Assembly (NCBI RefSeq): GCF_028693135.1
Contig: NZ_JAQUVZ010000026.1
Location: 1 to 46,389 of the forward strand
DNA from: Methanosarcina sp.
GTDB taxonomy: Archaea; Halobacteriota; Methanosarcinia; Methanosarcinales; Methanosarcinaceae
Direction: 5' to 3'
Length of the DNA: 46,389 bases
Shown here: positions 27,413 to 46,389 of the stretch, piece after piece
How positions within the stretch are numbered: position 1 is the first letter of the stretch
Layout: the number at the start of each line of letters is the position of its first letter
The notes under the pieces: model-generated
The model's database searches: none
The model's input: only the letters and a program-made list of their open reading frames with translations
Told to the model about the DNA's origin: nothing
Made by a program: the position numbers and the translations under genes

Positions 27413-27490
27413 TTTATCTCCGCAGGCGAGAAGACCCCTTCCTCAAAAATCCAGACCTTCAGGCGAAGATTTTAGGGAGAGGTAGTTCAC
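27413..27490 (-). mobile_element. IS200/IS605-like right-end relic
   Basis: Read on the minus strand, the 3' part (GAGGAAGGGGTCTTCTCG through GGAGATAAA) matches 292-325 in 27 of 34 bases. The 5' part (minus-strand positions 27490 to about 27435) matches 45988-46043, upstream of the IscB RNA, in 44 of 56 bases without gaps. It thus links both mobile-element signals at the window edges. No transposase gene is nearby, so it is a decayed or solo end. Family assignment is inference. Confidence 0.6.
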
Positions 27491-27647
27491 TATATGGGAA
27501 AATAATAGGAAAATTACGGGTAAAAATGGGAAAACGTGGGTAAAAAATAGCAGGTGACACTGCCGAGACGTTTTGCAATTTCACGGTAAAAATCCTTCAA
27601 AATCTTAGAAATTGCCGGTATATCCTCTTTTCCCTCCTCGACTTTGA

Positions 27648-42192: not shown

Positions 42193-42251
42193 TATCCCAT
42201 ACAGGGTACCCCTGTTGAAATATATTATTTAAACATATCCGGGATATATTG

Positions 42252-42399
42252 GTTGAAGTAGCATTTGTTGAAGTAGCATTTGTTGAAGTAGCATTTGTTG
42301 AAGTAGCATTTGTTGAAGTAGCATTTGTTGAAGTAGCATTTGTTGAAGTAGCATTTGTTGAAGTAGCATTTGTTGAAGCGGCATTGATTGAAGTAGCTT
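42252..42399. repeat. 15-bp minisatellite between convergent genes
   Basis: Nine copies of GTTGAAGTAGCATTT (42252-42386, last copy with changes) and a partial tenth that runs into the stop codon region of the NIF3 gene (stop complement at 42398). Frames stay open on both strands (VEVAF repeated on plus, LQQML on minus), but no start signal precedes them. Confidence 0.92.
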
Positions 42400-43318
42400 A
42401 CTCAAGATATCTTCTGCGATTTTCATTGCCAAGGCTGCGCCGGTAATCTGAGCGTATCTGGTTTCTGGACTGTTCTTCAAGCATGAACTCAAGAGAACCC
42501 TTTCCAGGTTCTTCCTGTTTACAGGTCTCCTCTCCTGCTTTCATATCGAGTACAACCTTATTTTTGTCAACTCTGCAGTTAACCGCCCTGAGTCCGGAAG
42601 GCTGGTCAATGAATTCCACCTCAATTCCAGGAAGCCTGCGCAGCCTGGAACACAGGGCCTCCATACCCGGGTTCTCCGTTGCATAATGGGTTGCGTCAAT
42701 CAGGCAGAGATCTTCGTGCGTTCGGAGAATGTCATGCTTAAGTTCGGATGATATAAAGGCATCAACTCCGTTTTCCCTAGCGATTTCAAGATATTCGTTT
42801 CGAAAGCAGCTGCCTCCTATAACCATCACCTTACTGATTTTTTCCTTTTCTCCGGCGTACATAACAGGGGTCTGCAGGCAATCCGAAACATGGGCTGCCA
42901 GTTCAGCTGAGGAACATGGTTCTATTTCCCCGATCCTGCCAATTTCTGAAGTCCTTATATTTTTGAGCCCCAGACGGGCGGCAAGAACATCATTAATTCC
43001 TCCTTCAGCTCTATCGTAATTAGTGTGCATGCTGTAAAGGGAGATCCCGTTTTCAAGAGCAATCCTGAGGGAAGCCGCCAGAGACTTTGAAATCATGTTT
43101 ACCGGATGAAAGATGAGGGTGTGATGAGTTATCAGCATGTCTGCTCTCATTTCTGCCGCTTTTTTAAGAACGTAAGAGTTTGCATCCAGGGCAACTGCTA
43201 TCCTGTTCACATCATCCTCAAGCCCAAGGATCAAACCAATTCTGCCTTTATCAAAATCATCCGCAAGCTCAGGTGGAGCTATCTCTTCAAGGGTCTGCAC
43301 AATTTTTTTAAGTTTCAT
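42398..43318 (-). CDS. NIF3-like dinuclear metal protein
   Basis: 306 residues of the NIF3/YbgI/DUF34 family. Metal-site stretches are visible: ADMLITHHTLIF (about 60-71), SMHTNYDRAEGGINDVLA (about 96-113) and, near the C-terminus, LIDATHYATENPGMEAL. The family forms toroidal hexamers with a dinuclear metal centre; its role (possibly GTP cyclohydrolase-like or metal-chaperone) is unsettled. The last 40 residues are Glu/Arg-rich and look like a lineage-specific tail. Confidence 0.9.
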   Translation of the reverse strand: MKLKKIVQTLEEIAPPELADDFDKGRIGLILGLEDDVNRIAVALDANSYVLKKAAEMRADMLITHHTLIFHPVNMISKSLAASLRIALENGISLYSMHTNYDRAEGGINDVLAARLGLKNIRTSEIGRIGEIEPCSSAELAAHVSDCLQTPVMYAGEKEKISKVMVIGGSCFRNEYLEIARENGVDAFISSELKHDILRTHEDLCLIDATHYATENPGMEALCSRLRRLPGIEVEFIDQPSGLRAVNCRVDKNKVVLDMKAGEETCKQEEPGKGSLEFMLEEQSRNQIRSDYRRSLGNENRRRYLE

Positions 43319-45799: not shown

Positions 45800-45925
45800 A
45801 ATAAAAAGAGAAAGTTAACAATTAAAAAAAAGAGAAAGTTAACAATTAAAAAAAAGATGAAATTAACAATTAAAAAAAAGATAAAATTAATAATTAAAAA
45901 AAAGATAAAATTATAAATTAGAACA
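45800..45925. repeat. 24-bp tandem repeat upstream of the IscB RNA
   Basis: Five copies at 24-base spacing of AGAGAAAGTTAACAATTAAA followed by an A-run, decaying to AGATAAAATTATAAATT toward the right. It lies about 40-160 bases upstream of the IscB-associated segment. No start signal gives it coding potential. Confidence 0.85.
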
Positions 45926-45928
45926 TAG

Positions 45929-45945
45929 AACTTCTATAAAACCCT
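45929..45945 (+). promoter_or_regulatory. Possible promoter of the IscB RNA
   Basis: ACTTCTATAAAACC (about 45930-45943) is TATA-like. Transcription would begin about 25 bases on, near 45964, at the base of a hairpin GGGTAGTT/AATTACCC (45965-45972 with 45991-45998). Transcripts would thus include the guide region and the scaffold. Confidence 0.35.
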
Positions 45946-46024
45946 GGAACGAAATGAGAAAATCGGGTAGTTCACAAAAAGATCAAAGTCAATTACCCCT
46001 CCCTAAAACCTTCACCTAACGGCT

Positions 46025-46292
46025 CAGGTTTTTGAGGAAGGGGCTTGTCTAACAAGCCCTGGTTGACCAGATCACCGATAAGGAGCAATGGAAAATCGGT
46101 AAACGATAGGAAAGAAATAGTTACCCTTGAATGCCGCCTCAGTTTAAGGCTCTAAGGATGCCGGTTAAACAGTCCTGAGAGGTAGGGACAGTGCTTGCAT
46201 CGTTAAACCTTTCCATATCAGATCGAGAGGAAGACGGATTCCGGAATTGACTCCACAATTCAGATACGCATAACTCTTCGGAGGAAAACTAT
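46025..46292 (+). ncRNA. HEARO-type structured RNA / IscB omega-RNA
   Basis: A chain of hairpins ending at the iscB start codon: GGGCTTG-TCTAA-CAAGCCC (46041-46059); CTGGT-TG-ACCAG next to it; ACCGAT/ATCGGT (46074-46079 with 46095-46100); GCCT/AGGC near 46140-46155; GATGC/GCATC enclosing a GTCC/GGAC helix (about 46157-46205); GAATTG-ACTCCA-CAATTC (46244-46261); CTC-TTCG-GAG (46274-46283). HEARO RNAs lie directly upstream of IscB genes and act as omega-RNAs whose 5' segment is the guide. The 5' end is set here to include about 16 bases before the first scaffold stem; the exact guide boundary is inference. Confidence 0.8.
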
Positions 46293-46389
46293 ATGTTAGT
46301 TTTCGTAATCAATCAAAACAAAAAACCACTAATGCCCTGTAAACCTTCAAAAGCCAGAAAGCTACTGCAAGCAGGCAAGGCAAAAGTGG
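46293..46389 (+). CDS. iscB: IscB-like RNA-guided nuclease, N-terminal fragment (runs off the window)
   Basis: The first 32 codons are present, reading MLVFVINQNKKPLMPCKPSK then ARKLLQAGKAKV. PLMP and the ARKLL..GKAKV pattern are the N-terminal PLMP/RRXRR segment of IscB, the transposon-encoded relative of Cas9 with split RuvC and HNH domains. GGAGG at 46280-46284 gives good spacing to ATG 46293, but it lies partly within a UUCG-capped hairpin. The directly adjoining HEARO-type RNA upstream supports the call. RuvC, bridge helix and HNH domains cannot be checked in this window. Confidence 0.88.
   Translation, partial: MLVFVINQNKKPLMPCKPSKARKLLQAGKAKV

What the first reader, a model, noticed from the sequence alone, without database searches (positions are those of the whole stretch)
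46025..46389. IscB with its structured guide RNA in an archaeal chromosome
Sequence shows a PLMP-motif ORF start at 46293, preceded by about 250 bases of consecutive hairpins that abut its ribosome site. From established knowledge, HEARO RNAs upstream of IscB act as omega-RNAs for RNA-guided DNA cleavage. Most studied examples are bacterial, so an archaeal locus with an intact RNA scaffold and reading frame start is worth functional study.
Basis: partly seen in the sequence, partly recalled or inferred. Interest (0 to 1): 0.85.

Follow-up and report, generated by a model that had tools for sequence, protein, structure and literature searches.

The report
Archaeal IscB transposon with guide RNA
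The window ends inside one of dozens of copies of a jumping gene that carries the RNA-guided DNA cutter IscB and its guide RNA in a methane-producing archaeon; the kind is known, but the family here is unusually large and most copies keep only the RNA.

Summary
Rfam HEARO (RF02033) matches window 45988-46235 (+) at 117.1 bits, E 1.1e-23. A Shine-Dalgarno and an IscB start (46293, PLMP motif; 32 residues, then the contig ends) follow. The element's other end, with the last 57 IscB codons, lies at contig C16:1-185 of the same genome, and a sister genome holds the uninterrupted site. The middle of this IscB is unassembled, but eight other copies are intact.

The genus is Methanosarcina. This genome has 45 HEARO copies and 13 IscB matches; a sister has at least 78 and 59. 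Of 43 copies with both ends read, 33 lack IscB. Class A inserts before GTGA (23 of 24), class B (the window's) before ATGA (19 of 19). The motif's first base is complementary to one right-end base in 42 of 43.

An archaeal IscB-HEARO is not new (papers; 34 of 237 class genomes). Likely mechanism: TnpA moves the element in trans; IscB, guided by the left flank, cuts vacated sites. Cleavage and expression are untested.

The parts
45972..45987 (+). host flank just left of the element = predicted guide segment of the omega-RNA (about 16 nt; the length is recalled from IscB work, not measured here)
   Evidence: the 16-nt left flanks of the 45 copies are all different; the last 12 bases followed by ATGAA occur uninterrupted at G010:C1:2324218-2324234, the only exact match in 30 genus genomes
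45988..46046 (+). left end of the transposable element: GTCAATTACCCC with a long hairpin (module i); also the 5' strand of the RNA's first stem and its apical hairpin
   Evidence: 44 of 45 copies begin GTCAAYWVCC at this point; the hairpin is shared with TnpB-element ends
45988..46235 (+). HEARO / omega-RNA scaffold, class B
   Evidence: cmscan RF02033 117.1 bits; covariation in 21 of 58 predicted pairs
46280..46284 (+). Shine-Dalgarno GGAGG, 8 nt before the IscB start codon
   Evidence: sequence
46293..46389 (+). first 32 codons of iscB (PLMP / RRXRR N-terminus), cut by the contig end
   Evidence: open frame; NCBIfam guided_IscB E 6.4e-11; PF14239 match at C38:46299-46388, 40.5 bits

Best explanation
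The window ends in the left part of a roughly 1.6-kb ISC-type (IscB-carrying, IS200/IS605-like) element. Shown: a left-end hairpin that is part of a HEARO RNA, an iscB gene directly downstream, and a right-end hairpin (on contig C16) next to the genomic motif ATGA; insertion without target duplication; many copies, most of them reduced to ends plus HEARO RNA. Inferred: (1) a Y1 transposase TnpA acting in trans moves the element as single strands and picks the target by base pairing between a short DNA guide beside the right hairpin (5'-TNTCC here) and the target (ATGA here). (2) Transcription from the left flank through the element gives an omega-RNA whose 5' end is the flank sequence, so the guide always spells the insertion site. 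(3) IscB loaded with it cuts the vacated site, recognised by flank + ATGA, in cells where the element has left, so repair from a sister chromosome restores the copy. (4) RNA-only copies can load IscB made elsewhere and are kept by the same process.
For: Identity: HEARO 117.1 bits; guided_IscB equivalog 348 and 432.8 bits against cut-off 175 for the two IscB classes; RRXRR and HNH; D58, E154, H212, N226, H294, D297 invariant in 8 of 8 aligned copies and aligned with OgeuIscB (their catalytic roles are recalled). Element and insertion: both ends were read in 43 of 45 copies, 42 followed by RTGA and 1 by GGGA. 33 of these ends had been located with patterns that include RTGA; reading again with end-sequence patterns that leave the motif out gives 41 RTGA and 1 GGGA in 42 copies. 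Of 14 joined flank pairs tested, 10 are spanned without interruption in at least one of 30 genus genomes; five were aligned base by base and none shows a base gained or lost at the junction. The window's left flank continues straight into ATGAA in G010, and G000's matching right flank sits on C16 behind the last 57 codons of a 427-residue-type iscB. Transposase targeting: Y in YNTCC is C in 22 of 23 GTGA copies and in the GGGA copy, T in 19 of 19 ATGA copies, and T in 34 of 34 class-B copies read in G008. Nuclease-target lock: left hairpins swap between classes (module iii in 9 A and 5 B copies, module i in 1 A and 5 B) while class and target motif never swap (0 of 43).
Against: No expression, cleavage or transposition data. 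The window's own iscB cannot be read between residue 32 and its last 57. No intact tnpA with matching ends was found: of 3 Y1 matches in G000 one has a stop codon, one (C77) lies beside a class-B-like hairpin, one (C36) has unlike ends; none of the 8 Y1 matches without internal stops in G008 shows such ends by motif search (end alignments were run on 4 of those 8). In 2 of the 5 aligned empty sites the relative reads GTAA where G000 has GTGA. 4 of the 14 flank pairs (C41, C16, C34, C58:218599) have no spanning hit in the list, which was cut off; for C41 the left flank continues 6-7 bases into GTGAAAA in four relatives. One GTGA copy (C41) has T, not C, in its right end.
Confidence: 0.85

Rival explanations
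1. RNA-only copies are plain non-autonomous passengers (MITE-like): the RNA core is carried along because its first stem is the left end, and it has no role with IscB.
For: 33 of 43 copies with both ends read lack iscB. Even smaller 51-base elements, one hairpin with left and right ends and no RNA core, are also multi-copy, so the RNA core is not needed for mobility.
Against: The RNA core, some 150-200 bases that ends do not need, keeps its fold: 30 of 52 class-A pairs show compensatory changes in an alignment of 15 sequences that mixes RNA-only and iscB-linked copies, though much of that change comes from relatives whose iscB status I did not check. All 45 copies exceed Rfam's cut-off (the piece cut off at C69:1-134 is not counted). 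Target motif and class are locked in RNA-only copies too.
Confidence: 0.4
2. The family is dead: a past burst now decaying, with no active nuclease or transposase.
For: 2 of 10 iscB copies not cut by contig ends are broken (C58:218910 truncated, C9 with a TAG). No intact tnpA with matching ends was found.
Against: 8 intact IscB frames in this genome. In the sister G008 at least 78 copies with closely similar left ends, and 46 of 59 RRXRR matches in open frames of 420 codons or more without an internal stop, point to a recent burst. Ten insertions are absent from at least one relative.
Confidence: 0.15
3. The elements serve the host, for example by supplying a ribosome-binding site when inserted at a start codon, or by regulating the flanking gene.
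For: 7 of 19 ATGA insertions here and 9 of 34 in G008 open a frame of 150 codons or more at the ATG. In 10 class-B copies, ends reading CTGAGGGTTT sit at such starts 6 of 6, altered ends 0 of 4 (Fisher p 0.005, post hoc).
Against: In the window 24 of 116 non-genic ATGA sites are start-like anyway (frames of 100 codons or more). Adding five RNA-only G008 copies weakens the pattern (8 of 9 against 1 of 6, p 0.011). Among 11 mini-elements with a readable right end only 1 opens a frame of 100 codons or more.
Confidence: 0.07

Closest known systems
IscB-omegaRNA (OMEGA) systems: OgeuIscB, HfmIscB, TbaIscB
   Same: RRXRR/PLMP N-terminus, RuvC and HNH residues, HEARO RNA directly upstream of the gene; PDB matches 7utn, 7xht, 9k2z, 9k30
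   Different: archaeal; 426-427 and 438 residues; two classes in one genome (33-34% identical), each tied to its own target motif; most RNA copies without a nuclease gene
ISC transposons of the IS200/IS605 superfamily (Kapitonov and colleagues; recalled)
   Same: subterminal hairpins, insertion without duplication, fixed motif at one flank, guide-like bases beside the hairpin
   Different: no tnpA in the iscB-bearing elements read; end hairpins shared with TnpB elements of the opposite gene orientation
Multi-copy omega-RNA loci in Ktedonobacter racemifer (recalled from Altae-Tran and colleagues 2021; the paper is not held)
   Same: many HEARO copies in one genome, some without a nuclease gene (recalled)
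   Different: archaeal; class-motif lock and end-module exchange described here; whether reported for K. racemifer is unknown to me
PATE/MITE-like non-autonomous IS200/IS605 derivatives (recalled)
   Same: short elements with ends only
   Different: 33 copies here keep a full HEARO RNA

Membership tests
IscB (RNA-guided endonuclease of OMEGA systems) | IscB sequence family (PLMP/RRXRR N-terminus) | tested here: met
   window piece E 6.4e-11; full copies 348 and 432.8 bits against cut-off 175
IscB (RNA-guided endonuclease of OMEGA systems) | RuvC I-III and HNH catalytic residues | tested here: met
   in other copies of the genome: HNH PF01844 in both classes, residues invariant in 8 of 8 and aligned with OgeuIscB. 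For the window's own copy this stretch is unassembled
IscB (RNA-guided endonuclease of OMEGA systems) | HEARO/omega-RNA immediately upstream, same strand | tested here: met
   45988-46235, 57 nt before the ATG
IscB (RNA-guided endonuclease of OMEGA systems) | RNA-guided cleavage at a target-adjacent motif | not testable with these tools
   motif inferred from insertion flanks only
IscB (RNA-guided endonuclease of OMEGA systems) | omega-RNA expressed with 5' guide | not testable with these tools
   no RNA reads available
ISC / IS200-IS605-like transposon | insertion without target duplication next to a fixed short motif | tested here: met
   10 of 14 joined flanks found uninterrupted, 5 of 5 aligned ones exact at the junction; RTGA in 42 of 43, 41 of 42 when read without using the motif
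ISC / IS200-IS605-like transposon | subterminal hairpins with guide bases complementary to the target | tested here: met
   one position tested: 42 of 43 copies complementary at the motif's variable base
ISC / IS200-IS605-like transposon | cognate Y1 transposase TnpA with matching ends | tested here: inconclusive
   3 Y1 genes in G000, one beside a class-B-like right hairpin; 10 matches in G008, no matching ends beside an intact one
type II CRISPR-Cas (Cas9d) | Cas9d-level match of the protein | tested here: not met
   18.2 and 44.1 bits against a cut-off of 375

The most novel reading that the evidence does not exclude
Methanosarcina genomes hold two separate IscB systems whose omega-RNA genes have multiplied apart from the nuclease, as RNA-only mobile elements. 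A few IscB genes would serve dozens of trans-acting guides, each spelling its own insertion site. Class-specific motif reading (GTGA or ATGA) by IscB would be locked to the transposase's DNA-guide choice, since left ends recombine freely between classes while the motif-bearing right end never does.
Probability: 0.45. Interest if true: 0.65.

Novelty: new member of a known kind. Interest (0 to 1): 0.42.

Why it matters
If the trans-guide reading holds, this genus offers a natural multi-guide IscB system in an archaeal genus with laboratory genetics (recalled), with dozens of native guide/target pairs and two motif classes. That would let one test directly whether RNA-guided nucleases keep non-autonomous transposons in the genome, and how a nuclease's motif and a transposase's target stay matched.

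Tried and rejected
Join of the window to contig C22: the two ends overlap by exactly 81 bases and give an open 426-codon frame, but the uninterrupted site in G010 leads to C16, not C22, so that joined frame is not the window's gene.

C47 as a source of matching ends: the strong scores came from a HEARO copy lying beside that IS605 element.

Start-codon preference and Shine-Dalgarno donation: suggestive in 10 copies, weakened by G008 copies and by mini-elements; not claimed.

First RNA alignment A2 (25 sequences) had seven minus-strand loci given the wrong way round and was replaced by A3 (11 class-B sequences) and A4 (15 class-A).

Rows left out: L110, L126 and L128 gave no left end by my pattern. 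In G008, 6 of 40 class-B candidate loci gave no right end and 6 of 29 class-A copies gave none. In one search the C84:17852 copy did not fit the end patterns, so 42 rather than 43 were reread; those patterns were drawn up after seeing the copies.

Caps: HEARO in G008 was scored for only 54 of 157 candidates, so 78 from an exact pattern (reversed-pattern control 0) is a lower bound. The hit list was cut off. One search used stricter filters that lose weak matches.

Papers: searches on IscB or HEARO with Methanosarcina, and on non-autonomous or multi-copy IscB (open-licence library only), listed no title on this Methanosarcina expansion; of those lists I opened one paper (PMC12558985, one passage). 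PMC6452270, listed and naming both terms, was not opened.

Full report
What is in the window. Rfam's HEARO model is the only family in the window at gathering threshold: 45988-46235, plus strand, 117.1 bits, whole model. GGAGG at 46280-46284 and ATG at 46293 follow. The frame runs to the contig end at 46389; its 32 residues match the IscB equivalog model.

Where it is. The window is the whole of contig C38 of an 89-contig, 4.22-Mb genome. The contig ends inside a repeat: 42 DNA matches to window 45900-46389, itself included, occur in the genome, with 45 HEARO copies and 13 IscB N-terminal (RRXRR) matches. Of the 13, eight are intact frames (C88, C67, C16, C34, C89, C37, C31, C1), two are broken (C58:218910, C9) and three are cut by contig ends (C22, C84, C38).

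The rest of this copy. Sister genome G010 carries the window's left flank running straight on into ATGAAAGGATACC. The matching right flank in the window's genome is contig C16 (C16:183-785, 95%). C16 begins with the last 57 codons of an iscB of the 427-residue type, in frame, then CTGAGGTAAG and ATGAAAGG. So the element is complete at both ends, and about 340 codons between them are missing from the assembly, presumably in a collapsed repeat. An apparent overlap of the window with contig C22 was followed and dropped for this reason.

Anatomy of the family. I could read both ends in 43 of 45 copies. Elements without iscB are 335-572 bases long (33 copies, median 341); those with it, broken genes included, 1,586-1,646 (10 copies). 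44 of 45 begin GTCAAYWVCC (the C31 copy is altered), and all 45 left flanks differ. Class A (25 copies: 3 with iscB, 21 without, 1 cut) and class B (20: 7, 12, 1 cut = the window) differ in RNA core and in IscB (33-34% identity). The motif right of the element is GTGA in 23 of 24 class-A copies (GGGA in one) and ATGA in 19 of 19 class-B copies. Because 33 of those ends had been located with patterns containing RTGA, I read 42 again from end sequences alone: 23 GTGA and 1 GGGA in class A, 18 ATGA in class B. In G008, 34 of 34 class-B copies are followed by ATGA (pattern required RTGA) and 23 of 23 class-A copies by GTGA (pattern did not require it).

The motif belongs to the target. Fourteen pairs of flanks were joined and searched in 30 genus genomes; 10 are spanned by one uninterrupted match in at least one relative: C56, C79, C64, C54:67256, C88:7912, C37, C3:90792, C58:114761, C88:11544, C1. 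C41, C16, C34 and C58:218599 have none in the list, which was cut off. Five aligned sites show no base gained or lost at the junction; three keep RTGA exactly, two read GTAA in the relative. An eleventh site, before a gene I take by eye for hacB, is uninterrupted in locus L104.

How insertion is probably chosen. Just beyond the right hairpin each of the 43 copies has YNTCC. Y is C in 22 of 23 GTGA copies and in the GGGA copy, T in the remaining GTGA copy and in all 19 ATGA copies, and T in 34 of 34 class-B copies of G008. This is Watson-Crick complementary to the variable first base of RTGA, as expected if a Y1 transposase reads its target through a DNA guide, as recalled for IS608. The transposase itself is not pinned down: three Y1 genes here, one of them next to a class-B-like right hairpin; ten matches in G008, none with matching ends beside an intact gene by motif search.

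Links to TnpB elements. The left hairpin of the window's element recurs at 16 further places examined; at 5 of them a tnpB-like frame runs the other way behind it. The one frame tested is TnpB (OrfB_IS605, Cas12f1-like). For that C34 element both ends align with the class-B IscB ends (scores 73 and 37; shuffled maxima 25 and 24); L091 and L092 score 63/37 and 63/42, positions not read. IscB and TnpB elements thus probably share a transposase.

RNA structure. Class B: 58 pairs predicted, 21 with compensatory changes, 11 sequences. Class A: 52 pairs, 30 with compensatory changes, 15 sequences, RNA-only and iscB-linked copies together.

Protein. Both classes pass NCBIfam guided_IscB, carry RRXRR and HNH, align with OgeuIscB and other solved IscBs, and fall far below the Cas9d cut-off.

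Spread. HEARO exceeds its cut-off in 10 of 30 genus genomes and 34 of 237 class genomes, own genome included. G008, a closed genome, has 59 RRXRR matches (some are pieces of one gene) and at least 78 left ends. A scan of named genomes gave 42 loci, among them Methanosarcina, Methanohalobium, an Asgard archaeon, Clostridia and cyanobacteria.

What is known. [quoted passage not shown] PMC12988326 (passages) met IscB-HEARO in archaeal genomes. The finding is therefore a new member of a known kind. In the listings of my searches (open-licence library only) I saw no title on this Methanosarcina expansion or on the class-motif lock.

Verdict. Real, correctly identified, ordinary as an archaeal IscB; more interesting as one of a large, mostly RNA-only family with two motif-locked classes. 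Function is inferred from anatomy; nothing here shows cleavage or expression.

Noticed in passing
L230:1772-1822 (sister genome G010) and contig C16:227-277 of the window's genome; 20 similar G000 places fetched as L266-L285: 51-base mini-elements: one hairpin with an IscB-type left end and a class-B right end followed by ATGA, no RNA core. Besides the main matches, 39 short matches in G000 and 34 in G008, part of them only right ends of larger elements; 11 of 20 fetched show both ends.
   Followed up: partly
window 27435-27491 (-): A TnpB-type element end (GTGAACTACCTCTCCCTAAAA...) with no TnpB frame seen behind it.
   Followed up: no
ten class-B right ends in G000; L223-L227 in G008: Ends reading CTGAGGGTTT|ATG place a GAGG motif at the start of a long frame in 8 of 9 copies, altered ends in 1 of 6; post hoc and not borne out by mini-elements.
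   Followed up: partly
C34:80699, C3:204914, C62:22208, C56:24859, C89:20010: tnpB-like frames lie, in opposite orientation, behind the same hairpin that starts IscB elements; the C34 element shares both ends.
   Followed up: partly
window 45800-45915: Imperfect A-rich direct repeats of about 25-27 bases just upstream of the insertion (by eye).
   Followed up: no
window 42229-42492: Frames on both strands show a five-codon repeat (VEVAF on +, MLLQQ on -), i.e. a 15-base tandem repeat, next to a gene I take by eye for a NIF3-like protein.
   Followed up: no
class-B copies C58:253064, C58:250979, C3:17165, C3:90792 after the HEARO RNA: Short tandem units (TTCCAGCTACGCTGTAACACTCCAACTTCACGAAGTTGGAGTCC and variants) differ in number between RNA-only class-B copies.
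   Followed up: no
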